NCBI GenBank assembly: GCA_030674155.1
Contig: CM060322.1
Span: 61,326,382 to 61,390,381 of the forward strand
Direction of reading: 5' to 3'
Length of the DNA: 64,000 nt
Source of the DNA: Stramonita haemastoma
Taxonomy: Eukaryota > Mollusca > Gastropoda > Neogastropoda > Muricidae
Under the pieces are notes generated by a model. That model was given only the letters and a program-made list of their open reading frames with translations, did not search any database and had not been told where the DNA came from. The translations under genes were made by a program, and so were the position numbers. Positions 339 to 18,646 of the stretch are shown here, one piece after another (within the stretch, counting starts at the first letter, position 1; each line of letters opens with the position of its first letter).

Positions 339-1067
339 TGGACAGTTAGTAAAGACTTTACTACTTAGTGGGCAGATGACCAACAAACTAGTTCATTACC
401 AGTATGTCACTTACAACTACCGACAAACTACGGGAAAAGAGCTAGAGGGAAGTTATCACACATACCTTTTCAAATGCAACCACAGGAGGCTGTGCAGTGG
501 CTAGATAGCGAAGACCTTGCCTTCGGTATCGGTGAAGGCTACTCATCATCTTGGACAAATCCTAATCCAGGAAGATGGCACGTGCTGGCAAAATATCCCG
601 ACAAAACAGATGTCACAAAAAATAAGGTTCCCAACGAACCAAAAGTCAGCAGTCTGTATAACATATCTGCTGTCTGTCCATATGGCGTAGAATACATCAA
701 CACAGAGTTGAATCAAGACTGCGCAAGCACGCCACCATTTGTAGCACTCAGATTACTTCCACTACACGGAAAGGAGCATCCCATTGAGCTGACAGCCTGT
801 ATATGGGTGAAATGCTGGAGTAAATATGAATTCAGATATCCTGGCATGGAATTTGTCACGCCAATGATACCATACCAACACATGCCAGCAACAGTACAAG
901 ATAAATATCCTGCAGATATACTCTACTGTGGAGCATACTTTGATTGGCTTAACCCCTCTCATCTGTATGAACCAGGTACGCGGATGCAGTACCTCGATAG
1001 AAACCCTGAAGGTCCCGTACCCAGCGGTAGCAAACGCAAGAAGCCGGCAAACGAAAGTAACCAATAA
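339..1067 (+). pseudogene. Unit A: 5'-truncated parvovirus-like capsid (VP) gene
   Basis: This is the C-terminal ~60% of the VP protein seen in full in units B and C; the first ~160 codons are missing, replaced by the left flank. In phase it has a nonsense codon TAG at 366-368 where the other units have a Gln codon, then stays open to TAA at 1065-1067. The visible part keeps the late capsid strands, with the block PPFVALRLLPL that corresponds in position to the conserved PP-x-hydrophobic block near the C terminus of parvovirus capsid proteins, and ends in a short basic tail (GSKRKK). The last A of its stop codon is the first base of the ORF2 start. It is a decayed copy; the assignment rests on alignment with the other units and on general parvovirus capsid features, not on a database search. 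Confidence 0.75.
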
Positions 1068-2608
1068 TGACATCACAATTCCCACTAGGATTACAAGTGT
1101 ATCATTGCGAATTCGCAGTTACACGAAACACATATCAACCGCATGGCACTCGAAATTACTATGGGATAGGGTGGAGAAAACAACCTAGCAGACATGACAA
1201 TGACGAAACTTGGCTAATACAGGAAATGCGATACAGCAGGGTACATATGCCTAGTCCAGACAATGATACACCAGCAATATACTACTACATAATCAACCCT
1301 ACCAGGGATGGAATAGCATCACATGATGATCTAGAACTTATACTTAGAGCAAACTTAGGAACACCACCTACTTCAAACATGTGTTTCTTAGCCATAACAC
1401 ATCGTCACATCTACTTACCAGACATGGTCATAAACCTACAACCAGACAACAGACCGTACATGATACTCAACCTCTCAGAAGAACAACCTCCAAAAGATAC
1501 AATGCACTATGTAGGTAATTCAGTGATGACAAACGTAAGTACGTTAGACGTATCACAAGACAGAGAACGGACATACGTAGACGAGACATGGACAGTGGCA
1601 CTCCCCCTCCGAGCAGGTCAACCAGCAAACGTAGCAAGAAGTGAAACATTTGCTCTCCACCTTGAACTGTACAGGTGGTCAACATCACCACTTATGAGGC
1701 TAGCAGATATGGACAAATTCCAACCATTTGATGGATACACTCCTATTATAGGGGGTATCAAAAAGAAAGTTCTGAATAAAGGAATCATAGACGCAATACA
1801 ACGTCTGAAACAGAAGACAAACTCGTTCGCTGCTTGGCAGACGCAGTACAAAGCAAAAGTAGACGGGAATGAGGCAGATATAGGGCAACTGAACAGTAAC
1901 ATAAACGCGCTGCAGGCGTGGAAGACACAGTATAAGCCGAAGATAGATGGCCATGAAATCAGTATCGGTCAATTGGACCACATCAAAATTCTGCAGAGTG
2001 AATTACACACACACACTGGTGCACTGTTTCCTCAGACTATTGATGAACTCAAAAGTCTCATAAATGCTATGATAGACATACGTGCATCACCAGCAGTGCA
2101 GGAGGTATAAAAAAAAGTAACCGCTATGGAAACAGCATCTAAGGCTATCACAAAAACTGTTCAAGTGCTTCAAGCGGCTGTTAGCGCTGCGGGAGGGGAC
2201 CTCAGTGGCCTACCGACCCTGGTGGAGGCGGGGGAGTACATACTTGACACTGCCATACGGTTCTACAACTGGCTGAAAGACTCTTACGAGATAATTGACC
2301 CATACAAATATCCTGGTGATGTAGGATGGACAACGGTGACCCCTGGGACGCCCTCTGGAGAACCGGCAGTCCCCAGCAACCGCGTCCGGCGGTCCGCCAG
2401 ACCACGCAACAGGCCGGCCCAAGTGCAGCCGCGCAGACCTACTGGTATCACGCCATCTTACGGCCGCACTCCCCGAGTGACCCCAAAGCCAGCATCCAGC
2501 TCGGCAAGACCCTCTCCCCCACCTACCTCACCCCCCAAGAAACAATTGCTGATGGAAAGGGAGGGGTCAAGCGATCAAAAGATGGACGTCCCTTCACCAG
2601 ATATTTAG
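1067..2608 (+). pseudogene. Unit A: ORF2 (unrecognised viral protein), one nonsense codon
   Basis: Same protein as the intact ORF2 of unit C. The frame runs from ATG 1067 and is interrupted once by TAA at 2108-2110, where unit D has a Gln codon; the same frame reopens and continues to 2608. The tail differs from unit C after the SPPKK block because small indels shift the end. The N-terminal half looks beta-rich, the middle is heptad-like and Gln/Lys-rich, and the C-terminal third has a conserved Ala/Gly-rich then hydrophobic segment (AAGGDLSGLP...) before a Pro/Arg-rich tail. Its last part overlaps the NS1 start in another frame. Function unknown. Confidence 0.7.
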
Positions 2609-2703
2609 ACGACCCACAACAGTACGCTCACTGCCAAGTGGTCTACACGCCAGAATGTCTACTCAACATTACCCCAAGACATTAAAAAAGTCAATAACGC
2701 CAT
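2326..2703 (+). pseudogene. Unit A: NS1 fragment, truncated after ~120 codons
   Basis: The frame opening at ATG 2326 matches the N terminus of NS1 in units B and C (LGKTLSPTYLTPQE, then a KxGR-x-FTRYLDDP block). Indels near 2625-2650 throw it out of frame, and similarity stops at about 2703 inside the stretch that in B and C precedes the HUH motif. Everything downstream (nuclease core, helicase, small 3' ORF) is absent and replaced by junction repeats. The copy cannot encode a replication protein. Confidence 0.7.
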
Positions 2704-3144
2704 CGCGGACACGCAGGCCGCCCCGTGACCTTGACCTAATTAAGTGATCTAATTACCGAGTTGACCTAATCAACCGATCTAATTACCGAATCGACCTAAT
2801 TGACCGACCAAATTACCCGACCTTGACCTAGTTAATTTGACCTAATTAAGTGACCTATTACGTGACCTTGACCTGATTAACGATTGACCTTGGTACCTGT
2901 CACCTTGTACTGACCCAGTGCGCTTGCACCAAGTGCAATTGCGCATAATGTGACCTAATTAAGTGGTCTTAATCTAATTAATGTATTTGACCTACTTAAC
3001 GATTGACCATGGTACCATGACCCTTGCACTGGCCCAGTTACCGGGAAATCAATGACCTTGACCTAATTGAGTGACCTAATTAGATGCCTTGACCAAAGTA
3101 AGTGACCCATTAACTGGTCGTATTTGGTCGACCTTGACCAACTA

Positions 3145-3504
3145 AGTTACCCGATTTTCAGGTAACTGGGTCAGTACAAGGGTTAAGGTACCAAGGTCAC
3201 CTTGACTTAACTTAACTTAACTTGACTTAACTAGGCGCATGGGCGAAGCCCTTTCGCGCCCGGACACGCAGGCCGCCCCAAGACCTTGAACGTGACCTAA
3301 TTAAGTGACCTAATTAACTTGACCTAATTAACCAGCCTTGACCTAATTAACTTGACCTAATTAACTTGACCTAATTAACTTGACCTAATTAACTTGACCT
3401 AATTAACTTGGTCTACTAACCTTGACTACTAACCTTGACCTAATTAATTTCGGCCTTGGTACCATGAGCGTTGTACCGTCCAGTTACCTGAAAATCAGGT
3501 AACT
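3145..3504. repeat. Imperfect long inverted repeat at the A/B junction
   Basis: The left arm (3145-3199) is the same ~55-base sequence that forms a perfect hairpin at the C/D junction; the right arm (about 3451-3504) is its reverse complement with roughly ten mismatches. Instead of a short loop, ~250 bases of GC-rich palindrome and TGACCTAATTA repeats lie between the arms. Each arm also contains a small internal palindrome around AGTTACC/GGTAACT. This resembles a degraded viral terminal repeat. Confidence 0.65.
3237..3280. other. GC-rich palindromic element between the inverted arms
   Basis: A short island with very different composition from the AT-rich array around it. It contains GGGCGAAGCC...TTCGCGCCC, which can pair with itself, followed by the repeated word also found near 2707. 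In parvoviruses the tips of terminal hairpins often carry small GC-rich palindromes, so this could be a remnant of a hairpin tip; that is inference. Confidence 0.4.
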
Positions 3505-3589
3505 GATTCATCAGGTCCGGCCATCTTTGACCTAATTGGGTACAACTTAGGGTACAACAACATCATAGGTTGCACCGATATAGGTCAAT

Positions 3590-3830
3590 GACGTCATCGA
3601 TATGTCACCATGATCTCATGTCAGCACTTAATTAGGTCACGCGTCAGCACTATAAATAGAATAACGGTCGCTGAGTCAGCAAAATTCAAATCTTATGACG
3701 TCACGTGACCTCGACCAATCAGAAGCCTGACCTTATGACGTAGATGGGACGAATCTATTTCAACCAATCAGCGATCACTACATGGACTCGTCCGAACTCA
3801 CTATAATGGAACTCACTATAAATACCGACG
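3590..3830 (+). promoter_or_regulatory. Unit B promoter region, two TATA boxes
   Basis: TATAAATA occurs at 3651-3658 and again at 3817-3824, ~165 bases apart, both upstream of VP. Between them lie an 11-bp palindrome GCTGAGTCAGC (3670-3680, AP-1/Maf-type), a CRE-like TGACGTCA (3696-3703) overlapping the E-box CACGTG (3702-3707), and CCAAT motifs at 3715 and 3764. Units C and D keep nearly the same order of sites. This is a strong RNA polymerase II promoter layout; paired promoters are common in parvoviruses. Confidence 0.75.
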
Positions 3831-4030
3831 CGATTCCCGCCAAGCACCACTCTACTCACTACTGGCCACGGGAGTACGCCCGAAGAGACTTTTTACGGAG
3901 AACGTTTTAGTGAACCGGTTTTATATGTGACTGTGAAAAAAAACAAAAAACAATTCACTGGACTTATGAGCTGTTGAAGAAGTTCTGTTTCGAAGGAATA
4001 GCAGCCAAAAGGAAATACCGGACAAACGAA

Positions 4031-4039
4031 AAGGTAAAG
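4031..4039 (+). promoter_or_regulatory. Unit B: candidate 5' splice site before VP
   Basis: AAG|GTAAAG with the GT at 4034-4035 lies 15 bases upstream of the VP ATG. The same position holds GAG|GTAAGG in units C and D. Its conservation suggests that unspliced RNA gives VP and spliced RNA gives a downstream product. No acceptor could be assigned by eye. Confidence 0.5.
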
Positions 4040-4049
4040 AAACTTATTC

Positions 4050-5254
4050 ATGGCTTCTGGCGCTAGCGGTGGTGGTGCGGCTACCACCAATTCACAATAC
4101 GTATCCGGCAATTTACTAGAACACAGTAACGTCGGAGCGAACAAACCGTTCCATAGCTCGACCAAAACTGCATACTTTCAAAGAACGTGGCAGTGGCATG
4201 TACAAAGTCACAGCTCGGCGCCTCACTACGTTGCTCAAGTGCAACAAGTGCAGGACGGTTTTCAAACTGTACCATACACAAACCCAAGAGCAAGTATTCA
4301 CGCATCAGAATGGTACAGAATGGCGAATAACGCTAGCGCATACAAGCACATTGGAATGGGCTTCACAATCGAAAAAATACAATTGATGGAAGAAAGAATA
4401 CAGCACACGGCCGGAACAACAATTATCAGTAGCACACAGGCGCATAACACCACACTCATGGCTCTGAAAGATAACAGAACACGATGGGGTATGGCTATGG
4501 TAAACGAACAAGGCAAACGTCATTGGACTATAAGTAAAGAATTTACAACACAGTGGGCGGATGATCAACAATCTAGCACATTGCCAGTTTGTCACTTACA
4601 ATTGCCCATGAACTATTCGAGAAGACACAAAGGAAGACTGACACACATACCTTTCACACTGGAACCTCAAGAAGCTGTTCAGTGGCTCGATAGCGAAGAC
4701 TTAACCTTCGGTATCGGAGAAGGGTACTCATCCTCTTGGACGAATCCAAATCAGGGAAGATGGCACGCGTTGGCCAGATACCCTGACAAAACGACTGTGA
4801 CCAAAAACAAAGAACCGAACCAACCGAAAATCACCAGTCTATACAATATGTCAGCAATCTGCCCATACGAGTAGAATACAACATAAATACAGAAATCAAC
4901 CAAGACTGCGCAAACATGCCACCCTTTGTAGCACTCAGACTGTTACCGCTACACGGAAAAGATCACCCCATAGAACTCACAGCATGCATCTGGGTGAAGT
5001 GCTGGAGCAAATATGAGTTCAAATACCCCGGCATGGAATTTGTCACACCCATGGTGCCATACCAACCAATGCCCACAAGCGTAATTGATAAATACCCAGC
5101 AGACATCATACACACAGGAGCCTACTTTGACTGGCTTAACCCCTCTCATCTCTATGAACCAGGTACGCGCATGCAGTATCTGGACAGGAACCCCGAAGGG
5201 CCTGAACCAAGCGGAAGCAAACGCAAGAAGCCTTCAGAACCCAACGAACAATAA
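4050..5254 (+). pseudogene. Unit B: parvovirus-like capsid (VP), one frameshift
   Basis: Starts at ATG 4050 with a Gly-rich N terminus (residues ~3-12), as in parvovirus capsid proteins that carry a Gly-rich stretch before the jelly roll. Residues ~70-100 (VPYTNPRASIHASEWYRM) sit where parvovirus capsids have their S-P-x-(D/E)-W block, followed by a GFTIEKIQ strand. The C-terminal PPFVALRLLPL block and basic tail GSKRKK are also present. Compared with unit C a single G is missing near 4868-4870, producing TAG at 4872-4874; the rest is open in another frame to 5254. Expected length is ~400 aa, about that of the core capsid protein of small parvoviruses. Stop and ORF2 start overlap as TAATG. 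Assignment to a parvovirus capsid is by motif and context. Confidence 0.75.
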
Positions 5255-6781
5255 TGACATCACAGTTCCCACTAGGACTGCAAGTCCACCACTGCCAATT
5301 TGCAATAACACGAAACACGTACCAACCTCACGGTACCAGACACTACTACTCGGTAGCCTGGAGAAATCAACCTAGCATAAACCACGACGACATATGGGTA
5401 ATACAAGAAATACGATTCTCAAGAATACGACTGCCACAACCAGAGGGTTCAGGATTCACACCACCCACACCAAGATACTACTACTTACACGAACCAACGG
5501 GACTAGGCATACAATCTGACGACAACAGAAACCTATTATGCAGACCGAATTTAGGAACGGCACCCGCAACAAACATGTGCTTCTTATCAATTACGCACAA
5601 ACACATATACTTACCAGACGCAGTCATCAACCTACAACCGGACACCAGACCATACACGATATCAATCTATCAGAAGAACAACCCCCACAAAACACGATGC
5701 ACTACGTAGGTAATTCGATTGTGACGAACGTAAACACGATAGACGTATCACGAGACAGAGAACGGACATACGTAGACGAAACATGGACAGTGGGACTCCC
5801 CCTCCGAGCGGGTCAACCCGAACTAGTGGCCAAAACGGAAACATTCACGCTCCACCTCGAACTGTACAGGTGGTCGACATCACCATTGATGAAACTAGCC
5901 GACATGTCAAAATTTCAACCGTTCGAAGGATACGCTCCAATCATAGGAGGTGTCAAAAAGAAAGTTCTCAATAAGGGAATCACTGACGCCATACAACGTC
6001 TCAAACAAAAGACAAACAACTTCGCAACATGGCAAACACAATACAAAGCGAAAGTAGACGGAAATGAGTCGGACATAGGCCAACTCAATACAAATCTGAA
6101 CGCGGTGAAGGCTTGGCAACAAAAATACCAGCCCAAAATCGACAATCACGAAATCAACATCGCTCAACTAGACACCAAGATCAAAACACTGCAGTCCGAA
6201 CTCCATACGCACACTGGCGCGAATTATCCGCAAACAATAGAAGAACTCAAACAACTCGTCAACGCCATGATAGACATACGCAAAACACCCACGGATCAGA
6301 ACATTCAACAAAAACTAACCGCTATGGAAACAACCACCAAAGCTATCACAAAAACAATACAAGTCCTCCAAGCCGCAATTAGCGCAGCGGGAGGGGACCT
6401 TAGTGGCCTACCGACCCTCGTCGAGGCGGGGGAGTACATACTTGACACAGCCATACGATTCTACAACTGGTTGACAGACTCTTACGAGACAATAGACCCT
6501 TACAAATATCCTGGTGATGTAGGATGGACAACGGTGCAGCCTGGGACTCCCTCTGGGACACCGGCAGCCCCCAGAAACCGCCGACGGAGGCACGCCCAGC
6601 CGCCCAACAGACGACCTCCGACCTCCGGTGCAACGCCAATCTATTGGAATCTCGCCATCATCAGGCCAGCCTCGCCGAGCGGTCCGAAGGCCTCCGTACA
6701 GCTCGGGAAGACCCTCAGCCCAACTTACCTCACACCTCAAGAAAACATCCCCGACGGAAAAGGAGGTGTAAAACGGGCTAA
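5254..6781 (+). pseudogene. Unit B: ORF2, frameshifted
   Basis: Begins at ATG 5254, sharing one base with the VP stop. A one-base deletion near 5663 moves the reading frame; after it the ORF2 frame is open through the coiled-coil region (about 5960-6300) and the conserved C-terminal segment. A further length change of +7 near 6620 merges this frame with that of NS1, so a long chimeric open frame to 7457 appears here that is not present in unit C. The original ORF2 end corresponds to about 6781. Function unrecognised. Confidence 0.65.
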
Positions 6782-8913
6782 AGACGGGAGGGCATTCACA
6801 AGATACTTAGATGACCCAAACCAATATGATAAGACTCTCACAACAAAATGGAGCACCAGGCAAAACATATACAGTACATTGCCACAGGACATTAAAAAAC
6901 TCAATAACGCCATCAAACACATGTCAAACGACGAAACAACACACATGATGCTTGTATACCATGTGCCCATGAAACACCACTATACGCCAGACACTGTGGA
7001 CGAATGCGTCAACGGACCAATACCTCACCTCCACATGGTCTACGGATCAGGAGTCTCAACCAAATTGAGTCACATACCGACCTACAGGTCCCTTGCCAGA
7101 GCGGCCAAACAGGCAAACTTCGTGACATACACGAAGAAATGTACATACCTCCCAGGCCTAGTCAGTTACATGAAGAAAGACGGATATACAATGATGGGAA
7201 CCAACAGCACCATCATAGGCCGCGAGTACAGACACGCCATACCGGGAGGGCAAATCCGAGGACTAGAGAAGGATACTCCAGAGGTAGCCTCTGAGGCAAC
7301 CCCACACGGCGTGGGGGGATTCGAAGTCGTAGACTCTCCGCTTCGAGCGGTGGTCCGACAACAGATCCCTTCAGTAAAGCCACTGATTCCGTTGATGGCG
7401 ATCAACAGGAAGATCAAATACCGGAAGAAACCGATCCATTTGCAGAAGCCCCAGTGAGATCCAGAATCCAAGGCAAAAGGACCCTAACGTTCACGGGGGA
7501 AGACCCTCAAGTACACTTTGAGGGTCCGAAACCCAAAAAACCAAAACTACTGACAAAAGTGGAAGCGATCCCAGTTGCTGAGAAACTAATCGAACTCGCA
7601 GACGCGAGCAATGACAAACATGTAATACGCTATGTCATGAACCACAGGGAAGAAACAGACACCCTAATAAGCAGGCCAGATCTGCCTTCAGGAACTGTGC
7701 TCGGACAATTCCAACATATCTACCATGCAGGGTACTGGAAAGAGATTTCAAACAAAATATACGCCATGAGAGCGGAACAACCATGCCAGTACCCTAACGT
7801 ACTAGAGTGGTTAGACGGCCAACAGCCACTCCCAGAAATTGACGGACGAAGACTGCTACCCCAAAAGAGTCAGCCGTAAACTGGTGGAGGTGGTGTCACC
7901 AGATGGGACTCGAACCGAAAAGAACCACGTGCATGATACTAGACTTAATGCACAAAAACGACCCCAGAAGAAATTGTGTCGTGTTTGAGGGGCCCACGAC
8001 AGCAGGGAAATCATACTGGACGAGTGAACCTTTCAAGTCACTATACGATCTCAACAAGCATGTAGGCTTCACAACCAACTCAGAACAATTCGGGTTCATG
8101 GGTTGCGCAAACAAGCTTATCATCCTCGTGGACGAAAATAACATGAGTCCAACGAATGTCAGCACCTACAAAAGCGTCATGCGCGGCAACTTAACGCAAG
8201 TAGAGGTAAAAAACAAACCACCAATCAACCTAGACAAGACATTCATGCTGATGAACAGCAACAGGCCCCTGACCTTCGGACTTTCAGGGCCTGAAGCCGC
8301 AGCAGTACGCGAGAGGGTGCATCACTTCATGCTGCACCCTGAAGACATAAAGAGCACGCGAGAGATGCTCAAGGGGGCCAATCATCCGAACCCCAAGATG
8401 TGGGTGTGGCTCAACTACTGGATGTATGACGAAGACGACTTCAACATCTGTCGCGCCACAAACTGGGCAGACGACCCAAGTCTGTACGACTTCTGTGCAG
8501 ACCTACTAGAAGCAGAAATGCTAGTAGAATGGAGTGCTCTCAACAACACAGAGTACTGGACGGCTGACTCGATGGGGGAAAGTACGACACAGACAGACTT
8601 ACCGGACGACCTTCAAGGGATCGTACTCGAGGATCTGACAAAAGACCCGTTCACAAACACCTACCGGCCGGAGGTGGTGGACATATCAGATGATGACAAT
8701 ATCATACCAGAAAGTCCACTGGACGGGGAACAAAATCTATTCCCAGAAGAAGAAGAAGAAGAAAATCCAAAAACAGCGCCAAACACACCATTGGCAGCGA
8801 CAAAACAACCCACCCTCCTACAAATGTGGGGAAAAACCAAAAAAAGACTTCAGTTCCCAAAAGAACAGAAGCAATACAAAACATGCGCTGGACCGAGCAC
8901 AGACCTGGACTGA
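6524..8913 (+). pseudogene. Unit B: NS1-like replication protein, three frameshifts
   Basis: Homologous along its length to NS1 of unit C. Starts at ATG 6524 inside ORF2. Frame changes lie near 6620, 7335-7365 and 7855. Visible parts: HUH nuclease motif (PHLHMVY at about 7024-7044), a following Lys/Tyr motif (TYLPGLVSYMKK, about 7144-7180), and an SF3 helicase with Walker A GPTTAGKS (about 7990-8013), Walker B IILVDEN and a sensor-type strand ending in NSNRP. The C terminus has an acidic run of Glu and ends at TGA 8911-8913. In the family this protein nicks and unwinds the viral DNA at the terminal repeats in the nucleus. The breaks make this copy non-functional. Confidence 0.8.
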
Positions 8914-9228
8914 CTGGCAGGGTGCACAACCCATGACGTGTCATGGGTGCAACTGCTCAATGACAAAATGAAAGGCAAACCATACGTATTTGAACATGCC
9001 CGAGATATGTACATATGTAAATATGAATATAAGTCGCATTACATGTTGGATACTCAAGTTATGAGTGAATTTGACTATTTTTGTACATATGATATGCATA
9101 AATGTTTTGGAACTTTTCTAGATGATGATGAATTAGACATTTATATAAGAGCGATCATTGATGGATATATCATTGCAGACAGTCGTCCAGTTCACACACT
9201 CGGACAGACTGGAATCAACAACTTGTAG
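8914..9228 (+). CDS. Unit B: small ORF in phase behind the NS1 UGA
   Basis: The frame of NS1 continues open for 104 codons after its TGA, with no ATG until 8968. The first ~16 codons after the stop are almost identical in unit C, and the rest is well conserved (LDTQVMSEFDYF, IDGYIIADS), acidic and Tyr-rich. It ends at TAG 9226-9228, ~11 codons earlier than in unit C, so this copy is shortened. It could be reached by stop-codon readthrough, by splicing, or by internal initiation at 8968. I recognise no domain. Confidence 0.5.
   Translation: MAGCTTHDVSWVQLLNDKMKGKPYVFEHARDMYICKYEYKSHYMLDTQVMSEFDYFCTYDMHKCFGTFLDDDELDIYIRAIIDGYIIADSRPVHTLGQTGINNL
8929..8948 (+). other. Conserved stem-loop after the NS1 stop (unit B)
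   Basis: ACCCATGA (8929-8936) pairs perfectly with TCATGGGT (8941-8948) around the loop CGTG, 15 bases after the TGA. Unit C has the same stem with loop CGTT. A structure at this distance behind UGA-CUG could stimulate readthrough; this is inference. Confidence 0.5.
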
Positions 9229-9256
9229 AATGGAATGAATGCCAATTGCAAAACGT

Positions 9257-9276
9257 AATAAAAGGGGTTAGTCCCC
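9257..9276 (+). terminator. Unit B poly(A) signal and small hairpin
   Basis: AATAAA at 9257-9262 is followed directly by GGGGTTAGTCCCC (9264-9276), a short stem. The same pair occurs at the end of unit C, so this marks the 3' end of the unit's transcripts. Confidence 0.7.
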
Positions 9277-9584
9277 CAAAGGTGGACGGGCTGTCTGACA
9301 TTATTTAAAAAATATGCCAGCAGCACGTGACCCCCTTTGGGTGCAACCACCAATACTACTTGTACCGAAGACCAAGCAAGGCAGCCAGACCTGATGACTC
9401 GATGTTGTACATCGCTACAGTACAAGACACAAGGTACGTAACAAGAGATTTGAAAACAGAAAAACAAATCTGTTGGGCGGACTGGGGATTGGGCGCTTCA
9501 AGAAATCAAAAACGCCAAAAAAAGCGTACTGTACGGGGGTCGTTAGTTATACCCCCTGTAAGTAACTAGGTCACTAGGTCAGTG
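9277..9584 (+). other. Unit B-specific segment between poly(A) signal and next promoter
   Basis: About 300 bases found only at the B/C junction, where the repeat array and long hairpin of the other junctions are missing. It has an open frame (9327-9569, GTG start, 80 codons, Arg/Lys-rich C terminus) with no recognised similarity, an inverted repeat CCCAAAGG/CCTTTGGG (about 9275 and 9333), and a GGGGG...CCCCC palindrome near 9535-9560. It may be terminal viral sequence of a different lineage or an unrelated insertion. Confidence 0.35.
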
Positions 9585-9790
9585 TGCTTAATTAGGTCAA
9601 GCGTAAGCACTATAAATAGAATAACGGTCACTGAGTCAGCATTATTCAAATATTTTCCCGCCATATGACGTCATCTGACCTCGACCAATCAGAAGCCTGA
9701 CCTTATGACGTAGATTGGACGAGTCCACTTTTAGCCAATCAGCGCTCAGTAGGTGGTATCGCCCGAATTACACTATAAATACTGGCGCGG
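9585..9790 (+). promoter_or_regulatory. Unit C promoter region, two TATA boxes
   Basis: TATAAATA at 9611-9618 and 9774-9781, with TGAGTCAGC just after the first box, TGACGTCA near 9666, and CCAAT motifs near 9685 and 9735. The order and spacing match unit B. A TAATTAGGTCA copy sits just upstream (about 9590). Confidence 0.75.
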
Positions 9791-9978
9791 ATCCCGCCAA
9801 CGCACCACTCTTCACTCAACTGTTCAGGACAACACGATCCTAGCGTCTTTTTGTGGCGGTTACCGCTACATTTCAGTGCAGCGTTTTGTTTGTGCTAAAA
9901 AAGAAAACTATTCACTGGAATTAAGTGGTGATTGTGCTTATTTTCGAAAGGATTAGCAGCCACTGGATATACTTTGTA

Positions 9979-9992
9979 TGTCACGAGGTAAG
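9979..9992 (+). promoter_or_regulatory. Unit C: ATG mini-exon and 5' splice site
   Basis: ATGTCACGAG|GTAAGG: an ATG followed after three codons and one base by a good 5' splice site (GT at 9988-9989). Unit D has the same arrangement (ATGTCAGGAG|GTAAGG). It could supply the start codon of a spliced downstream protein. Confidence 0.45.
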
Positions 9993-10003
9993 GGAACTTT
10001 TTT

Positions 10004-11206
10004 ATGGCTTCTGCTGCTGGTGGGGGTGGGGGTGCTACCACAAATTCTCAATACGTGTCCGGTAATTTACTAGAACATAGTAATGTCGGAGCAAACAAAC
10101 CATTTCACAGTAACACAAAAACTGCATACTTTCAGCGAACGTGACAGTGGCATGTACAAAGTTATAGCACAGCGCCACACTACGTTTCTGAGGTGTCGCA
10201 GGTGCAGGACGGTCTTCAAGCCGTACCATACACAAACCCTAGGGCTAGCATCCATGCATCAGAATGGTATAGAGTGGCGAATAATGCTAGCGCATACAGG
10301 CACATTGGTATGGGTTTCACTATCGAAAAAATCCAACTGATGGAGGAAAGAATACAGCATACGGCCGGAACAACTATGATAAGTAGTACACAGGCGCATA
10401 ACGCCACACTCATGGCTCTGAAGGATAACGGGACAAGATGGGGGATGGCAATGGTAAATGAGCAGGGAAAACGTCATTGGACGATAAGTAAGGAATTTAC
10501 CACACAGTGGGCAGATGACCAACAGACTAGTTCATTACTAGTATGTCACTTACAACTACCCATGAACTATGCAAAACGCCACAGAGGAAGACTGACACAC
10601 ATACCGTTCACTGTAGAACCTCAGGAGGCTGTGCAGTGGCTCGATAGCGAAGACTTGACCTTCGGTATCGGAGAAGGCTACTCATCCTCATGGATGAATC
10701 CAAATCCGGGCAGATAGCATGCTTTGGCCAGATATCCAGACAAAACAGATGTCACCAAAAATAAAGCACCAAATGAACCTAAGATCACTAGTCTGTACAA
10801 CATGTCCGCCATCTGCCCATACGGAGTAGAATACAACATCAACACAGAAATCAACCAAGACTGTGCAAACATGCCACCCTTTGTAGCACTCAGACTGTTA
10901 CCGCTACACGGAAAAGATCACCCCATAGAACTGACAGCCTGTATATGGGTGAAATGCTGGAGCAAATATGAATTCAGATACCCTGGCATGGAGTTCGTCA
11001 CCCCAATGGTGCCATACCAAATGATGCCTACAAACATGAATGATAAATACCCAGCAGATATACACACTGGAGCCTACTTTGATTGGCTTAACCCCTCTCA
11101 TCTGTATGAACCAGGTACACGGATGCAGTACCTTGACAGGAACCTTGAAGGGCCTGAACCCAGCGGTAGCAAACGCAAGAAGCCATCAGAACCAAGTGAA
11201 CAATAA
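10004..11206 (+). pseudogene. Unit C: parvovirus-like capsid (VP), two nonsense codons
   Basis: One continuous frame of 1203 bases from ATG 10004 to TAA 11204-11206, interrupted by TGA at 10142-10144 and TAG at 10715-10717; both replace TGG (Trp) codons seen in unit B. Otherwise it is collinear with unit B: Gly-rich N terminus, S-E-W block, PPFVALRLLPL block and basic tail. The 400-codon length fits a minimal capsid protein without the phospholipase A2 extension; I see no calcium-binding or HD-type PLA2 motif. Stop overlaps the ORF2 start (TAATG). Confidence 0.75.
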
Positions 11207-12651
11207 TGTCATCACAGTTTCCACTAGGGTTACAAGTATACCATTGCGAGTTTGAAGTCACTAGAAATACATATCGGGGACACGGTACTCCTAACTACTA
11301 TGGGGTACGGTGGAACAAACAACCCAGCAGACTAAATGACAACGAGCAATGGTATATACAAGAACTAAGGTTTTCAAGATCTGCACTACCAAGATCAGTT
11401 GAATTCTACTACACACATGCCCCTACAGGTGCAGGCGTACAATCACACGATGACACAACACTACTTGTCAGACCAAACTTAGGACAACCACCTACCGCAG
11501 CTATGTGCTTTATGATGATCACACACAGACACGTATACCTACCACACACAGTAGTTAGCCTACAACCACATGCCAATCCATACACAGTACTAAACATGTC
11601 AGAAGAATCACCACCGGCAGACATCATGCACTATGTAGGTAATTCAGTCTTGACAAATGTGACAGTAGCAAGTGAAGCCTTAGGTAGAGAACGGACATAC
11701 GTAGACGAGACGTGGACAGTAGCACTTCCCCTCCAACCAGGAGAACCGGTAGGAACAGCCAAAAGTGACACATATGCCCTCCACCTCGAACTGTACAGGT
11801 GGTCAACATCACCACTCATGAGGCAGGCTGACATGTCTAAATTCAAACCCTTTAACGGGTATGCACCTATTATAGGTGGAGTGAAAAGGAAAGTCTTGAA
11901 CAAAGAACTGACAGATGAACTGGCGGTTCTGAAACAGAACATACACGCCTTAGCTGCAGATATAGCAACCATGAACGGAAACATGAACATGATGTCAGCC
12001 TGGCAACAAACCTATAAGCCCAGGATAGATGGTCATGAAGTCACACTTGGTGGCTTAGACCGCCAACTGAAAATCCTGCAGGGAGAACTCCGGGAACACA
12101 CCGGGGCACTGTTTCCAAAAACAGTAGACGATCTCAGAAGTCTTGTCAATGCCATGATAGACTTACGCAAAACACCAACAGAACAAACTCTAGAACAAAA
12201 ACTATCCGCTATGGAAACAACCACAAACGCTATCACAAAAACAGTACAAGTGCTTCAAGCTGCTGTTAGCGCTGCTGGGGGAGACCTCAGTGGCTTACCT
12301 GTTCTGGTGGAGGCGGGGGAGTACATACTTGACACTGCTATACGGTTCTACAACTGGCTGACAGACTCTTACGAGACAATAGATCCTTACAAATATCCTG
12401 GTGATGTAGGATGGACAACGGTGCAGCCTGGGATAGCTTCTGGGGCACCGGCAGCCCCCAAAAGCCGCCGACGCCGACACGCCCAGCCGCCCAACCGTCG
12501 ACCTCCACTACGACACAACTCTATTGGTATCACGCCATCATCCGGCCAGCCTCGCCGAGCGGTCCGAAGGCCTCCATCCAGCTTGGAAAAACCCTCTCGC
12601 CCACCTACCTCACCCCCCAAGAAAACGTGCCAGACGGCAAAGGAGGGGTAA
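11206..12651 (+). CDS. Unit C: intact ORF2, 481-aa unrecognised viral protein
   Basis: The only long viral frame in the array that is fully open. It starts at ATG 11206, overlapping the VP stop by one base, which suggests coupled re-initiation. Residues 1-225 are rich in Tyr and short hydrophobic strands with a conserved block RERTYVDETWTVALPL (~161-176) and LHLELYRWSTSPLM (~192-205). Residues ~228-320 look like a coiled coil (ELTDELAVLKQNIHAL, then LDRQLKILQGELREHTG). Residues ~345-390 hold an Ala/Gly-rich then hydrophobic segment (GDLSGLPVLVEAGEYILDTA), and the tail from ~415 is Pro/Arg-rich with RRRRH, possibly nuclear-targeting. The tail overlaps NS1. A second structural protein (minor capsid, spike or assembly factor) is plausible because it sits with VP; this is inference. 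I know no parvovirus protein like it. Confidence 0.75.
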   Translation: MSSQFPLGLQVYHCEFEVTRNTYRGHGTPNYYGVRWNKQPSRLNDNEQWYIQELRFSRSALPRSVEFYYTHAPTGAGVQSHDDTTLLVRPNLGQPPTAAMCFMMITHRHVYLPHTVVSLQPHANPYTVLNMSEESPPADIMHYVGNSVLTNVTVASEALGRERTYVDETWTVALPLQPGEPVGTAKSDTYALHLELYRWSTSPLMRQADMSKFKPFNGYAPIIGGVKRKVLNKELTDELAVLKQNIHALAADIATMNGNMNMMSAWQQTYKPRIDGHEVTLGGLDRQLKILQGELREHTGALFPKTVDDLRSLVNAMIDLRKTPTEQTLEQKLSAMETTTNAITKTVQVLQAAVSAAGGDLSGLPVLVEAGEYILDTAIRFYNWLTDSYETIDPYKYPGDVGWTTVQPGIASGAPAAPKSRRRRHAQPPNRRPPLRHNSIGITPSSGQPRRAVRRPPSSLEKPSRPPTSPPKKTCQTAKEG

Positions 12652-14762
12652 AGCGTGCAAAAGATGGCAGGGCATTCACACGTTATCTTGATGACCCTAC
12701 CCAATATGACAAGACATTGACTGTAAAATGGAGCACCAGACAGAACATATACAGCACATTGCCACAAGACATCAAAAAGCTTAATAATGCAATTAAGCAC
12801 ATGTCCAATAATGAAAGTACACATGTGATGTTGGTGTATTATGTGCCGATGAAGAACCATTACACGCCCGACACACTTGACGAGTGTGTAAACGGACCCA
12901 TAGGCCATCTCCACATAGTCTACGGGTCCGATGTCTCAACAAAGTTAAGTCACATACCTGCCTGCAGGTCCCTTGCCAGAGCGGCCAAACAGGCAAACTT
13001 TGTCACATACACCAAGAAGTGTACCTACCTCCCTGGCCTGGTGAGCTATCTGAAAAAAGATGGCTACACCATGATGGGCACAAACAGCACCATCATAGGC
13101 CGGGAGTACAGGCATGCCATCCCCGGAGGACAAATCCGAGGACTTGAGCAAGATACACCTGATGTAGCATCAGAGGCTACTCCACATGGAGTAGGGGGAT
13201 TTGAGGTGGTTGACTTCTCCGCCTCGAGCGGGGGACCCACAACAGCAGATCCCTTTGGCAAAGCAAATGACTCAGTTGACGGCGGTCAACCTGACCCATT
13301 TGCGGAAGCGCCTGTGAGATCAAGGCTGCAAGGCAAAAGGACCCTGACATTCACGGGGGAGGAACCTCGAGTGCATTTCGAGGGACCGAAGCCGAAAAAA
13401 CCAAAGCTCCTGACGAAGGTGGAGGCCATTCCGGTGGCGGAGCGACTTATCGAACTCGCGGACGCGAGTAACGATAAACAGTTGATTCGGTAATTGATGA
13501 TGCACACCGAAGAAACAGACACCCTAATCAGCAGGCCAGATCTGCCAACAGGAACTGTGCTCGGCCAGTTCCAACACATATACCATGCCGGCTATTGGAA
13601 AGAAATTTCCAACAAAATCTATGCCATGAAGGCAGAGCAACCGTGTCAGTTTCCAAATGTCCTTGAGTGGCTGGACGGGCAACAGCCCCTCCCGGAGATA
13701 GACGGTAGAAAGGTGGCTACCCCCAAAGAGTCGGCCGTCAACTGGTGGAGGTGGTGCCTCCAAATGGGTCTGGAGCCCAAAAGAACCACATGCATGATCT
13801 TAGATCTCATGCATAAAAATGACCCCAGGAGAAGCTGTATCGTGTTTGAGGGGCCCACGACAGCGGGGAAAAGCTATTGGATGTCTGAGCCGTTCAAAGC
13901 ACTCTTTGATCTCAACAAGCATGTTGGGTTCACCACAAACTCTGAGCAGTTTGGGTTCATGGGCTGCGCCAACAAGTTAGCCATACTTGTTGACGAAAAC
14001 AATACGAGTCCAACCAACGTGAGCACATACAAGAGTGTGATGCGCGGCAATCTGACTCAGGTGGAAGTGAAAAACAAACCACCAGTCAACATTGACAAAA
14101 CTTTCATGTTGATGAACACCAACAGGCCTCTGACATTTGGACTGTCAGGGCCTGAAGCCGCTGCAGTGCGTGAAAGGGTGCATCACTTTATGTTGCATCC
14201 TGAGGACATTAAGAGCACCAGAGAGATGCTCAAAGGGGCCAAACACCCAAACCCCAAGATGTGGGTTTGGTTGAATGATTGGATGTACGACGATGATGAC
14301 TTCAACATCTGTCGTGCCACCAACTGGGCAGAAGACCCAAGTCTGTACGATTTCTGTGCAGACTTACTCGAGGCTGAAATGCTCCTCGAGTGGAGTGCAA
14401 TCAACAACACAGAGTATTGGACGGCTGACGGTATGGGGGAGAGTACAACTCAGCCGGACTTACCGGAAGACTTACAGGGCATAGAGTTGCAGGATCTGAC
14501 AACGGATGACTTTCCACACACCTACCGGCCGGAGGTGGTGGACATTTCGGATGATGACGCAAACGTGATCCCAGAGAGTCCAATGGACGGGGATCAGGAC
14601 CTGTTCGAACAGGATCCAAAAACACCGCACAATACACCATTGGCGGTTCCAAAACAGCCCACTCTGAAACAAATGTGGGGCAGGGCCAAAAAGAAACTTG
14701 AATATCCCCATGAACCAAAAAAGGCAAAAACATGGGCTGGTCCGAGCACAGACCTAGATTGA
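12411..14762 (+). pseudogene. Unit C: NS1-like HUH nuclease/SF3 helicase, one nonsense codon
   Basis: A single frame from ATG 12411 to TGA 14760-14762 (783 codons), broken only by TAA at 13491-13493 where unit B has a Tyr codon. Start choice: TGA lies just upstream in this frame. Order of parts: variable N terminus inside the ORF2 overlap; HUH motif HLH at ~166-168; candidate catalytic Tyr in TYLPGLVSYLKK (~205-216); linker with Pro/Lys-rich GPKPKKPKLL; SF3 helicase with Walker A GPTTAGKS (~481-488), Walker B LAILVDEN (~523-530) and MLMNTNRP (~566-573); acidic C terminus. In the family it is the replication initiator acting on terminal hairpins in the nucleus. Length fits parvovirus NS1 (600-800 aa). 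Gene order is unusual: it lies downstream of VP and ORF2. Confidence 0.82.
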
Positions 14763-15113
14763 CTGGCAGGGTGCACAACCCATGACGTTTCATGGGTGCA
14801 ACTGCTAAATGAAAGAATGAAGGGAAAGCCATACATCTTTGAACAGTGTTGGGACATGTACATAGGTAAATACGAGTTTGATAGCCACTATATGTTAGAT
14901 ACGCAAGTGATGAGCGAGTTTGATTATTTCAATACGTATGACATGCATAAATGCTTTGGTTGTTTTGTGGATGATGATGAGCTTGACATGTATTATATAA
15001 GAGCAGTAATAGATGGATATATAATTGCAGACAGTCACCCACTCCATACACTCGGACAGAGTGGAGTGAACTACCTCAAGAGCAGAATGAATGCGAATTG
15101 CAAGAAACAATAA
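14763..15113 (+). CDS. Unit C: small ORF in phase behind the NS1 UGA
   Basis: 116 codons stay open after the NS1 TGA, ending at TAA 15111-15113, which overlaps the AATAAA signal. The first in-frame ATG is near 14817. The sequence is conserved with unit B over its whole length although silent positions differ, which argues for a real protein. It is acidic and rich in Tyr and Met (MSEFDYF, DDDELDMYYIRAVIDGY). The stop context is TGA-CTG, followed by the stem at 14778-14797. Possible uses: readthrough extension of NS1, a spliced product, or a separate small protein. Unrecognised. Confidence 0.55.
   Translation: MAGCTTHDVSWVQLLNERMKGKPYIFEQCWDMYIGKYEFDSHYMLDTQVMSEFDYFNTYDMHKCFGCFVDDDELDMYYIRAVIDGYIIADSHPLHTLGQSGVNYLKSRMNANCKKQ
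14778..14797 (+). other. Conserved stem-loop after the NS1 stop (unit C)
   Basis: ACCCATGA and TCATGGGT form a perfect 8-bp stem around CGTT, starting 15 bases after the TGA, as in unit B. Only the last loop base differs between the two copies. Confidence 0.5.
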
Positions 15114-15134
15114 AAGGGGTTAGTCCCCAAGGGG
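15109..15134 (+). terminator. Unit C poly(A) signal and hairpin
   Basis: AATAAA at 15109-15114 followed by GGGGTTAGTCCCC, as in unit B; the TAA of the upstream ORF lies within the signal. Confidence 0.7.
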
Positions 15135-15146
15135 GAAACGTGCTGT

Positions 15147-15550
15147 GTCTTGACCTAATTAAGTGATCTAATTAACGAGTCAACCTAATTGAGCGGCTCA
15201 ATTAGCCCACCTTGACCTAATTAATTTGACCTAATTAAGTGACCTGATTGAGTGACCTTGACCTAATTAACGATTGACTGTGGTACCTGTCACCTTGTAC
15301 TGACCCAGTGCGCATGCACTAAGTGCAATTGCAATGGCGCATAATGTGAATTAAGTGGTCTTAATATAATTAATGTATTTGACCTAATTAACAGTGACCT
15401 AATTAACGATTGGCCATGGTACCATGACCCTTGCACTGGCCCAGTTACCGGGTAAATCAATGACCTTGACCTAATTGAGTGACCTCATTAGTGCCCTTGA
15501 CCTAATTAAGTGACGCAATTAACTGGTCTGTATTTGGTCAACCTTGACCA
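15147..15550. repeat. C/D junction: TGACCTAATTA repeat array
   Basis: Homologous to 2730-3140 at the A/B junction. It has many TGACCTAATTA(A/G) copies plus two longer words of the type GATTGACC-TGGTACC...CTTG-ACTG-CCCAGT (about 15272 and 15405) that resemble the arm of the following hairpin. No gene is visible. Confidence 0.75.
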
Positions 15551-15554
15551 ACTA

Positions 15555-15683
15555 AGTTACCCGATTTTCAGGTAACTGGGTCAGTACAAGGGTTAAGGTA
15601 CCAAGGTCACCTTGACTTATTTAACAATTGACCTTGGTACCTTAACCCTTGTACTGACCCAGTTACCTGAAAATCGGGTAACT
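15555..15683. repeat. Perfect 55-bp inverted repeat (hairpin) at the C/D junction
   Basis: Bases 15555-15609 are the exact reverse complement of 15629-15683, with a 19-base AT-rich loop between them. Each arm contains the smaller palindrome AGTTACC...GGTAACT, so a branched fold is possible, as in parvoviral terminal repeats. It lies between the poly(A) end of unit C and the promoter of unit D, exactly where a viral telomere junction is expected in a head-to-tail concatemer. Confidence 0.85.
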
Positions 15684-15779
15684 GATTCATCAGGTCCACT
15701 TAATTTTTGACTGATTAGGTACTAATAACGTCATTGGTTGTACTGTTTTATGTTAATGATGTCATTAATGACGTAAGCG

Positions 15780-16030
15780 ATATATTTGTGCCATTCTCAC
15801 GTCAGCACTTAATTAAGTGCTTATGTCAGCACTATAAATAGCCGTCAGCACTAAAAATAGATTAACGGTCGCTGACTCAGCAAAATTCAAATTTTTTTCC
15901 TGCCATATGACGTCACATGACCTCAACCAATCAGAAGCCTGACCTTGTGATGTCACGAGGACGAGTCCATTTTTTCAGCCAATCAGAAGCCTCCGAATGG
16001 AATCGTCCAAAAACACTATAAATACTGGTG
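15780..16030 (+). promoter_or_regulatory. Unit D promoter region, two TATA boxes
   Basis: TATAAATA at 15833-15840 and 16017-16024. A palindrome GCTGACTCAGC follows the first box (about 15870), then TGACGTCA (near 15908) and CCAAT motifs near 15926 and 15979. A second degenerate copy of the first box region (CACTAAAAATAG) indicates a short local duplication. Confidence 0.7.
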
Positions 16031-16226
16031 CGCTTCCCGCCACTTCGCCATTCCTACTTCAGCGGTGTTCATGAGCAAGTCTCTGCGTCGCTCTGGATTA
16101 TTACACCGGTTTCTGATATAATTTCAGTGACTTGTTTGTGAACAAAAAAAAAGAACAATTCGCTGGATTTATGGTGATTGAATGTATTCCTTGGATATAC
16201 CTGCCACTGGATTTAGCTGAACATAC

Positions 16227-16240
16227 ATGTCAGGAGGTAA
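16227..16240 (+). promoter_or_regulatory. Unit D: ATG mini-exon and 5' splice site
   Basis: ATGTCAGGAG|GTAAGG with the GT at 16237-16238, 15 bases before the VP ATG at 16253, matching unit C. Confidence 0.45.
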
Positions 16241-16252
16241 GGGAAACTATTT

Positions 16253-17602
16253 ATGGCTTCTGGGAATGCTGGCGGGGGCGGGGGTGCTACTACTAACTCT
16301 CAATACGTGTCCGGTAACCTTTTAGAACACAGTAATGTTGGAGCAAGTAAGCCGTTTCATGACAGTACCAAAACTGCATATTTTCAGAGAACGTGGCAGT
16401 GGCATGTACAAAGTCATAGCACAGCGCCACACTACGTTCCTGAGTTGTCACAAGTGCAGGACGGTTTTCAAGCCGTACCATACACTCAACCTAGGGCTAG
16501 CATCCATGCATCTGAATGGTATCGAGTTGTGACGAACGCTAGCGCATACAGGCACATTGGTATGGGTTTCACTATTGAAAACGACAGAGAACGGACATAC
16601 GTAGACGAGACATGGACTGTGGCACTCCCTCTCCGACCAGGTCAACCCGTTGGAATAGCCAAAAGTCAAACTTTTACCCTCCACCTTGAACTGTACAGGT
16701 GGTCAACAACACCACTAATGAGATTAGCTGACATTGAAAAATTTTAACCATTCAATGGCTACGTTCCAATTATTAAAAGTTAAGTTAAAGTCTGTCCCGA
16801 GCCTAAGGCTCATCAGGCCGGTGCTTATCCCGGTTTCTGTGGCGCTAAGCGACTGAGAGTCATAGACTCCCCCCTGGATAGGACGCCAGTCTATCGCAGG
16901 GTTAACCCCCCAACACAAGGTTGGTACCCCTTTTACACCTGGGTGGGGTGAGAAAATAGCCGTAAAGTGCCTTTTCCAAGGGCACAACGCCATAGCCGAC
17001 AGCTGGGATCGAACCCGCAACCTTTAGATTACGAGTCCAACGCCCTAACCACTCGACTACCGCGGCGGCTACGTTCCAATTATAGGAGCAATTAAAAGAA
17101 AGTCCTCAACAAAGGTATTGTAGATCAAATCACTCTTTTGAAACAGAAGGTACATTCGTTTTCTGCTTGGCAAACGCAATATAAAGCTAAAGTAGACAGA
17201 AATGAATCAGACATAGGCCAACTCAACAGTAACTTGAACACACTTCAAACTTGGCAAACACAGTATAAACCTAAAATAGACGGCCATGAAATCAGTATTG
17301 GTCAATTAGACCACAGCATCAAAACTCTTCAAAATGAATTACACACACACACTGGTGCACTTTTTCCTCAAACTATTGATGATTTGAAAAGACTAATAAA
17401 TGCCATCGTAGATGTACGTGCATCACCACAACTGCAGACTGTACAACAAAAAGTAACTGCCATGGAAACTGCATATAAAGCTACTAGTAAGTCTATTCAA
17501 GTGCTTCAAGCGGCTGTTAGCGCTGCGGGAGGGGACCTCAGTGGCCAACCGACCATGGTGGAGGTGGGGGAGTACATACTTGACACTGCTATACGTTTCT
17601 AC
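16253..17602 (+). pseudogene. Unit D: VP-ORF2 deletion fusion, truncated
   Basis: VP codons 1 to ~110 join in frame, near 16582, to ORF2 at its RERTYVDETWTV block, so the rest of VP and the first third of ORF2 are deleted. TAA at 16745-16747 ends this frame (Gln codon in other units). A SINE then interrupts ORF2 (16774-17066). After it a one-base deletion near 17102 shifts frame, and the coiled-coil and Ala/Gly-rich parts follow to about 17602, where similarity ends abruptly. No NS1 is present. It is a decayed remnant. Confidence 0.75.
16774..17066 (-). mobile_element. tRNA-derived SINE with 17-bp target duplication
   Basis: The insertion is flanked by exact copies of GGCTACGTTCCAATTAT (16757-16773 and 17067-17083). 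Read on the minus strand it starts with a tRNA-like head: box A-type TAGTCGAGTGGTTAGGG and box B-type GGTTCGATCCC, followed by a body and an A/T-rich 3' end. It must be younger than the viral copy it splits. Confidence 0.85.
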
Positions 17603-18640: not shown

Positions 18641-18646
18641 GGCGTG

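What the first reader, a model, noticed from the sequence alone, without database searches (positions are those of the whole stretch)
339..17602. Tandem array of four parvovirus-like units with capsid first and NS1 last
Seen: four head-to-tail units on one strand, each in the order promoter, VP, ORF2, NS1, small ORF, poly(A). Known: parvoviruses place NS1 at the left of the genome and VP at the right, on one strand or ambisense. Inference: either the lineage has a permuted gene order, or the true genome ends lie elsewhere and the array shows a circularly permuted junction. Against simple permutation, the only hairpin seen lies between NS1/poly(A) and the VP promoter. This points to an undescribed parvovirus-like lineage.
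Basis: partly seen in the sequence, partly recalled or inferred. Interest (0 to 1): 0.88.

Follow-up and report, generated by a model that had tools for sequence, protein, structure and literature searches.

The report
Capsid-first, hairpin-ended parvovirus-like fossils
A eukaryotic genome, likely an animal's, carries broken copies of several strains of a parvovirus-like virus whose predicted capsid genes come before its replication gene, the reverse of the order that reviews give for parvoviruses, and whose replication protein is likely lengthened when ribosomes read through a stop codon.

Summary
The array is real, but only units 2 and 3 hold all four genes. The order VP-ORF2-NS1-S is not a tandem artefact: six of six dispersed copies in the same genome have it. 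One of them sits in a host tandem repeat that supplies the empty site, with a palindrome at each virus/host junction, so the linear ends likely lie between S and VP. The left cap occurs in both orientations among copies, as rolling-hairpin replication leaves it (the reverse is firm in one copy). NS1 matches Parvo_NS1 and has HUH motifs; ORF2 has a coiled coil whose best solved match is reovirus sigma-1. Units 2 and 3 differ by dS 0.6-1.9 at dN/dS 0.03-0.09: different viral strains, not duplicates. New: an invariant UGA-CUG followed by a conserved in-frame domain and, in most copies, a stem-loop (likely readthrough); VP stop overlapping ORF2 start; an invariant splice donor 16 nt before VP (likely NS1 from spliced mRNA). 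Not filed in Parvoviridae: the gene-order criterion fails. VP homology, expression and host are unproven.

The parts
339..1067 (+). unit 1 VP, start missing
   Evidence: tblastn of VP pieces; ORF 474-1067
1067..2608 (+). unit 1 ORF2, two pieces; start codon overlaps the VP stop (TAATG)
2326..2704 (+). unit 1 NS1, truncated after about 128 codons
2707..2722 (+). fragment of left-telomere cap, flip orientation (16 nt)
2732..3145 (+). left-end region with TGACCTAATTAA repeats, unit 1/2 junction
3234..3277 (+). unit 2 left-telomere cap, flip orientation (44 nt, 95%)
3293..3447 (+). inner arm of unit 2 left telomere: nine TGACCTAATTAA repeats
   Evidence: 21 in the window, 0 expected
3817..3823 (+). 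unit 2 TATA box (TATAAAT), in an ACTATAAATA block invariant in 9 of 9 copies with a leader
4034..4039 (+). unit 2 predicted splice donor AG|GTAAAG, 16 nt before the VP start; AGGTAA invariant in 9 of 9 copies
4050..5254 (+). unit 2 VP, one frame break
5254..6768 (+). unit 2 ORF2, broken; coiled-coil middle
6524..8913 (+). unit 2 NS1, broken; HUH motifs and SF3 helicase (7903-8913)
8911..8913 (+). unit 2 NS1 stop, TGA followed by CTG; 3' stem-loop to about 8957
8914..9225 (+). unit 2 S, in frame with NS1, 104 codons (115-116 in the others)
9257..9262 (+). AATAAA after S, unit 2
9535..9581 (+). right-end stem-loop GGGGG-CCCCC and half of the right palindrome at the unit 2/3 junction
10004..11206 (+). 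unit 3 VP, two in-frame stops
11206..12651 (+). unit 3 ORF2, open (481 aa); coiled coil, helices about residues 228-389 in a low-confidence model
12411..14762 (+). unit 3 NS1, one in-frame stop; HUH half 12411-13493, helicase half 13497-14762
14760..14762 (+). unit 3 NS1 stop, TGA followed by CTG
14763..15113 (+). unit 3 S, in frame with NS1
16253..17668 (+). unit 4: VP start joined by deletion to ORF2; no NS1 or S

Best explanation
The array is four broken endogenous copies, two of them with all four genes, of parvovirus-like genomes that read VP (the predicted capsid gene), ORF2, NS1 and S on one strand, whose parent virus was likely linear with hairpin telomeres between S and VP, likely made VP and ORF2 from unspliced mRNA and NS1 from spliced mRNA, and likely lengthened NS1 by reading through a leaky UGA stop. 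Shown: the order in units 2 and 3 and in six of six dispersed copies; palindromes at both host junctions of copy C13a; two cap orientations among copies; HUH and SF3 motifs in NS1; VP stop overlapping ORF2 start; invariant UGA-CUG with a conserved in-frame extension; invariant TATA box and splice-donor sequence in the leader; high synonymous divergence between units 2 and 3 at low dN/dS. Inferred: NS1 nicks and unwinds the hairpins in rolling-hairpin replication. One promoter drives all genes: the unspliced RNA gives VP, and ORF2 by termination-reinitiation; RNA spliced from the donor before VP to near the NS1 start gives NS1; some ribosomes pass the UGA to make NS1-S. ORF2 is a coiled-coil capsid-surface or fibre-like protein. 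Viruses of different strains entered the germline and joined end to end, by co-infection concatemers or by serial integration next to an older copy.
For: Order: (six of six dispersed copies, units 2 and 3). Parvovirus-type NS1. Motifs: HLH in six of six rows that cover it; Y(M/L)KK in seven of eight rows with letters there, the eighth being the out-of-frame start of a piece after a frame break. Termini: palindromes, host junctions with empty site, DNA folding z -14.5 (left, C13a) and z -21 (right, C11). Cap: C13a, C13b and two window places one way, C11 the other (26 against 10). Readthrough: TGA CTG in eight of eight; S in frame with the last ten NS1 codons in eight of eight; no in-frame ATG ahead of the conserved block; of the 18 codons after the stop eight vary only silently, eight vary in residue, CTG and TGG do not vary; stem-loop in six of seven distinct sequences, z -1.3 to -4.5, slid controls pair 30-44% against 91%. 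VP/ORF2 overlap nine of nine. Leader blocks nine of nine. Strains: units 2 and 3 dS 0.59-1.93, dN 0.03-0.12; a split with support 100/99 puts unit 1 with C20 and C28, units 2 and 3 with C13a, C7b, C11, C13b in the VP tree. ORF2: sigma-1, E 6e-4.
Against: VP matches no known family or structure and its AlphaFold model is useless (pLDDT 28), so 'capsid' rests on position, the Gly-rich start and analogy. No RNA data: splicing and readthrough are predictions. The acceptor before NS1 has a weak pyrimidine tract and lies in conserved coding sequence. The stem-loop is absent in C28 and is not better than shuffles at 5% in C20 (23 of 200); covariation is weak (30 of 500 shuffles reach the score, 50 of 500 the pairing). 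The reverse cap orientation is firm in one copy only; C7b supports it over 10 nt. Only one integration shows both palindromes, and its right one (90 bases) is shorter than that of C11 (130). NS1 also passes the cut-off of papillomavirus E1 helicase, at lower scores. No exogenous relative was found.
Confidence: 0.7

Rival explanations
1. The virus was circular; the copies are linearised circles and the capsid-first order is only a cut of the circular order NS1-VP-ORF2.
For: A preprint reports that most members of a group of large parvoviruses with coiled-coil (Cah) proteins may have circular genomes (PMC11071296, passages), and ORF2 fits the Cah description. The unit 2/3 junction has no full hairpin.
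Against: Two different palindromes lie at the two host junctions of C13a and C11 has a longer right one. All six dispersed copies run from VP to S; none was found opened inside a gene. Both cap orientations exist, which terminal resolution of hairpins explains and a circle does not.
Confidence: 0.15
2. S is a separate gene, started at the invariant CUG right after the NS1 stop or joined by splicing, not by readthrough.
For: CTG directly follows TGA in eight of eight copies; an acceptor-like AG follows within ten bases in seven of eight.
Against: That AG is lost in C28 while TGA CTG stays; the extension is in frame with the last ten NS1 codons in eight of eight; a 3' stem-loop follows in six of seven distinct sequences. 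Against selenocysteine: no SECIS at E up to 5 in window 8500-10100.
Confidence: 0.22
3. The array is a tandem duplication of one integration in the host genome, or an assembly artefact.
For: Head-to-tail units on one strand.
Against: dS between units 2 and 3 is 0.59-1.93 with dN/dS 0.03-0.09; unit 1 lies on the other side of a supported split, with copies from other contigs; the three unit junctions differ.
Confidence: 0.04
4. A host-domesticated or transposon-like element that spreads with its own NS1, not a virus.
For: Several dispersed copies; S open in eight of eight.
Against: No target-site duplication at the one resolved site but a small deletion; each of the eight copies with NS1 has at least one broken long gene, while divergence between copies shows strong purifying selection, as in lineages that replicated outside the genome.
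Confidence: 0.08

Closest known systems
Parvoviridae (Parvovirinae, Densovirinae, Hamaparvovirinae)
   Same: NS1 with HUH motifs and SF3 helicase (Parvo_NS1), palindromic hairpin ends with two cap orientations, small genome, Gly-rich start of the predicted capsid protein.
   Different: VP and ORF2 first, NS1 last, on one strand; predicted NS1 readthrough extension; coiled-coil ORF2; about 6.4 kb between the outer ends of C13a's palindromes; no PLA2 domain found; VP without detectable homology. Reviews place NS at the left in all parvoviruses (PMC11357303 section 5; PMC6631224 passages). Parvovirus-related transcripts of marine molluscs that branch outside the known genera are reported (PMC5013282, passages); whether they are kin is untested.
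Large Cah-bearing parvoviruses (PMC11071296, preprint, passages seen)
   Same: Parvovirus-type NS1, genome over 5 kb, a second structural protein with coiled coil whose typical remote match is reovirus sigma-1, as for ORF2 here.
   Different: Most of those are reported as perhaps circular; the copies here have hairpin ends.
Bidnaviridae
   Same: Parvovirus-type SF3 helicase; a reovirus-like structural protein; Gly-rich capsid start (PMC4061559, passages).
   Different: Bidnaviruses have PolB, no HUH domain and no hairpin ends; here HUH motifs and hairpins are present and no PolB was found in the ten unit ORF pieces scanned.
UGA readthrough viruses such as alphaviruses
   Same: Conserved UGA-C ahead of an in-frame domain, with a 3' structure (works like; the context and structure rule is recalled; that alphaviruses keep an opal codon was seen in an abstract start in the listing, PMC13105319).
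   Different: Unrelated RNA viruses; here the signal is in the replication gene of an ssDNA-type virus.

Membership tests
Parvoviridae | NS1 with SF3 helicase | tested here: met
   PF01057 58.5 and 54.5 bits; Rep40/Rep68 and an NS1 structure by profile, E from 5e-7
Parvoviridae | HUH nickase motifs in NS1 | tested here: met
   HLH in six of six rows, Y(M/L)KK in seven of eight; motif forms as in PMC12297876 (passages). No fold test.
Parvoviridae | palindromic hairpin termini | tested here: met
   C13a both ends, C11 right end; inferred from integrated copies
Parvoviridae | NS at the left, VP at the right | tested here: not met
   VP-ORF2-NS1-S in six of six dispersed copies and units 2, 3; rule from PMC11357303 section 5
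Parvoviridae | jelly-roll VP homologous to parvovirus capsids | tested here: inconclusive
   no significant match in Pfam, PDB sequences or 5.8 billion proteins; model pLDDT 28
Parvoviridae | PLA2 domain in VP (in most, not all) | tested here: not met
   no Pfam match in VP or ORF2 pieces
Parvoviridae | 4-6 kb linear ssDNA in virions | not testable with these tools
   integrated length about 6.4 kb in C13a (coordinates); no virion
Bidnaviridae | protein-primed PolB | tested here: not met
   no PolB in ten unit ORF pieces scanned
Bidnaviridae | HUH domain lacking, ends without hairpins | tested here: not met
   HUH motifs and hairpins present
Cah-bearing parvoviruses | NS1 plus alpha-helical coiled-coil surface protein, genome over 5 kb | tested here: met
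   ORF2 residues 244-338 against sigma-1, E 6e-4; helices in a low-confidence model; surface location untested
Cah-bearing parvoviruses | circular genome (reported as likely for most) | tested here: not met
   two different palindromes at the host junctions of one copy, C13a
Cah-bearing parvoviruses | sequence relatedness to the published contigs | not tested
   those sequences were not at hand

The most novel reading that the evidence does not exclude
A family-level lineage of hairpin-ended, HUH-SF3 viruses in which the capsid and fibre genes lie inside an intron of the replication gene, so that splicing switches from structural to replication protein, and in which NS1 is extended by programmed UGA readthrough; recorded in one genome as independently integrated strains with both telomere orientations. 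It would join the circular coiled-coil-bearing parvoviruses to the linear hairpin ones.
Probability: 0.55. Interest if true: 0.83.

Novelty: new variant of a known kind. Interest (0 to 1): 0.74.

Why it matters
Reviews give NS-left, VP-right as the rule for all parvoviruses; a hairpin-ended lineage that breaks it would show that the order is not required for rolling-hairpin replication. It makes testable whether coiled-coil-bearing parvoviruses are circular or linear. Stop-codon readthrough in NS1 would be a new expression tactic for this kind of virus (two searches of one open-licence library showed no such paper). The fossil telomeres with two cap orientations look like direct traces of hairpin transfer in a lineage that I could not find sampled.

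Tried and rejected
Protein database: VP (1480 candidates), NS1 (7991 scored) and the helicase alignment A7 (3554 candidates, E up to 10) gave no hit. Viral contigs: helicase, VP and S patterns matched 60, 21 and 30 stretches, none confirmed; a parvovirus Walker A pattern matched one stretch in that collection, so these misses weigh little. NS1 phylogeny among parvoviruses: not done, no reference NS1 sequences at hand. AlphaFold of the VP piece (pLDDT 28) and of ORF2 (pLDDT 35) failed and no fold search was run. Selenocysteine: no SECIS at E up to 5 in window 8500-10100. PHROGs: nothing better than E 0.05. S against Pfam: only weak matches, best E 0.012. Papers: (listings), passages of seven papers and one section; reversed order or NS1 readthrough in a parvovirus was not seen there, in an open-licence library only. 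Genome-wide search for VP, ORF2 and the NS1 front and for COX1 (host) was asked for but did not complete; so the list of copies rests on the NS1 search (8 matches), and copies without that NS1 part may be missed.

Dropped rows: NS1 stop, 8 copies used (units 1 and 4 lack it); leader, 9 used (unit 1 lacks it); VP/ORF2 junction and NS1 start, 9 used (unit 4 lacks them). Codon counts used open pieces of VP (8 copies), HUH part (6), helicase (6) and S (8) out of ten known units. In one search C13b was left out, being identical to C7b there. In some searches broken copies entered as separate open pieces. The ORF2-tail and S trees are less resolved; read without their midpoint roots they do not conflict with the VP split (ORF2: units 1 and 4, C20 and C28 against the rest, 83/88).
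Full report
What is there. Four units lie head to tail on the + strand. Units 2 and 3 hold VP, ORF2, NS1 and a small ORF (S). Unit 1 lacks the VP start and most of NS1. Unit 4 is a deletion from VP into ORF2.

The order is real. A Parvo_NS1 search of the whole genome gave eight matches: units 2 and 3 and six dispersed loci on five contigs, one of them on the window's own contig far away. I fetched the six. In six of six, VP, ORF2, NS1 and S follow on one strand. So the capsid-first order is no product of the tandem array.

Where the ends are. Copy C13a sits in a host tandem repeat, and a neighbouring repeat supplies the empty site. Left host sequence matches it to flank position 2108; right host sequence takes up again 3 to 14 bases further on in the empty site: a small deletion, no target-site duplication. 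A 187-base palindrome (75% over its length) begins within a few bases of the left junction, and a 90-base palindrome (88%) ends at the right one. C11 has a 130-base right palindrome (92%). As single strands the left end of C13a and the right end of C11 fold far better than shuffles: z -14.5 and -21. The left cap is asymmetric. It has one orientation in C13a, C13b and at two places in the window, and the reverse in C11 (28 bases, score 26 against 10); C7b leans the way of C11 over 10 bases, 10 against 6. Two orientations are what hairpin transfer produces (established for parvoviruses, recalled). Repeats TGACCTAATTAA line the left arms: 21 in the window, none expected. From palindrome to palindrome C13a spans about 6.4 kb (coordinates).

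The proteins. NS1 matches Parvo_NS1 at 58.5 and 54.5 bits (cut-off 20) and papillomavirus E1 at 28.5 and 26.9 (cut-off 26.5), and Rep40/Rep68 and NS1 structures by profile. Its front half carries HLH and Y(M/L)KK, the HuH and YuxK motifs described for a densovirus NS1 (PMC12297876, passages). VP has no detectable relative. It has a Gly-rich start, which PMC4061559 (passages) notes in parvovirus and bidnavirus capsid proteins, so 'capsid' is an inference. ORF2 has a long coiled coil; its best solved match by profile is reovirus sigma-1, E 6e-4, with tropomyosin, tail needle and other coiled coils behind it. PMC11071296 (preprint, passages) defines a class of coiled-coil surface proteins (Cah) whose typical remote match is sigma-1, and reports large Cah-bearing parvoviruses, most of them perhaps circular. 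The copies here fit that gene content but have hairpin ends.

How it is likely expressed. (1) VP stop and ORF2 start overlap in nine of nine copies, as TAATG or ATGA, which suggests termination-reinitiation. (2) The leader is poorly conserved (60 of 411 alignment columns invariant) except for three runs invariant in nine of nine copies: ACTATAAATA, CCAATC and AGGTAA. A run of ten was reached in 0 of 10,000 column shuffles; besides it, at least one run of six in 7 and two in 0 of 10,000. AGGTAA reads AG|GTAAAG or AG|GTAAGG, and its GT lies 16 nt before the VP start in every one of the nine (C20 has ATA in place of ATG). The NS1 start is preceded by ATGTAG|G in nine of nine, but this lies in conserved ORF2 codons and the pyrimidine tract is weak. 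The alignment of the 240 nt before NS1 shows no conserved TATA box. The simplest reading is that splicing removes VP and ORF2 as an intron to give NS1 mRNA. (3) NS1 ends in TGA CTG in eight of eight copies. S follows directly, in frame with the last ten NS1 codons in eight of eight; it is open in eight of eight and 44 of 116 columns are invariant. Of the 18 codons after the stop, eight vary only silently, eight vary in residue (mostly like for like) and two, CTG and TGG, do not vary. There is no in-frame ATG ahead of the conserved block. A stem-loop follows in six of seven distinct sequences, z -1.3 to -4.5, and is absent in C28; covariation is weak (two double changes; 30 of 500 shuffles reach the score), slid controls pair 30-44% against 91%. 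Readthrough is the best reading, not proven.

The array is a collection of strains. Between units 2 and 3, dS is 0.59 in the VP piece, 1.53 in the HUH piece, 1.93 in the helicase piece and 1.30 in S, with dN 0.03-0.12. That is divergence under strong purifying selection, hence before integration. In the VP tree a split of support 100/99 separates unit 1, C20 and C28 from units 2, 3, C13a, C7b, C11 and C13b. So the units are not host duplicates. C13b and C7b are near-identical viruses (dS 0.02-0.11) whose match does not extend into the flanks. The unit junctions differ: 2/3 joins half a right palindrome to the left leader, 1/2 carries two cap pieces, 3/4 a 130-base palindrome. Either co-infecting genomes joined, or later viruses inserted beside older copies; I cannot tell which. 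In none of the eight copies with NS1 are VP, ORF2 and NS1 all open.

Filing. The copies look like parvoviruses in NS1 and termini. They fail the gene-order rule stated for all parvoviruses (PMC11357303 section 5) and VP homology is unproven, so I call them parvovirus-like and do not file them in the family. Bidnaviridae are excluded by HUH motifs, hairpins and lack of PolB in the pieces scanned.

Limits. No RNA, no virion, no exogenous relative, unknown host. The viral-contig searches that found nothing were in a collection that seems poor in such viruses (one match to a parvovirus pattern).

Noticed in passing
right telomere of C11 (L015) and C13a (L010): The right palindrome contains AGGTCATGACCT and the left arms repeat TGACCT: half-sites of the nuclear-receptor type (recalled), shared by both telomeres; a binding element for NS1 or a host factor is possible.
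   Followed up: partly
window 9535-9556 and the same place in C13a, C13b, C11, C28: A GGGGG...ACCCCC stem-loop lies just inside the right palindrome in several copies; a nick site is conceivable.
   Followed up: no
window 27154-28308: Open frame with DDE_1, HTH_psq and Tc5 DNA-binding domains: a pogo/Tc5-type transposase (the type name is recalled).
   Followed up: no
window 18517-20056: Minisatellites of 37 and 40 bases and a 94% identical duplicated block (18720-19019 and 20138-20437) just after unit 4.
   Followed up: no
C28 (L013, L016) flanks: A host stretch of about 430 bases lies on both sides of the copy as a direct repeat, 93% identical; host tandem repeat or long duplication at integration.
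   Followed up: no
C13b and C7b (L011, L012): Near-identical viral copies whose match does not extend into the flanks and whose caps lean to different orientations: probably independent integrations of one strain.
   Followed up: partly
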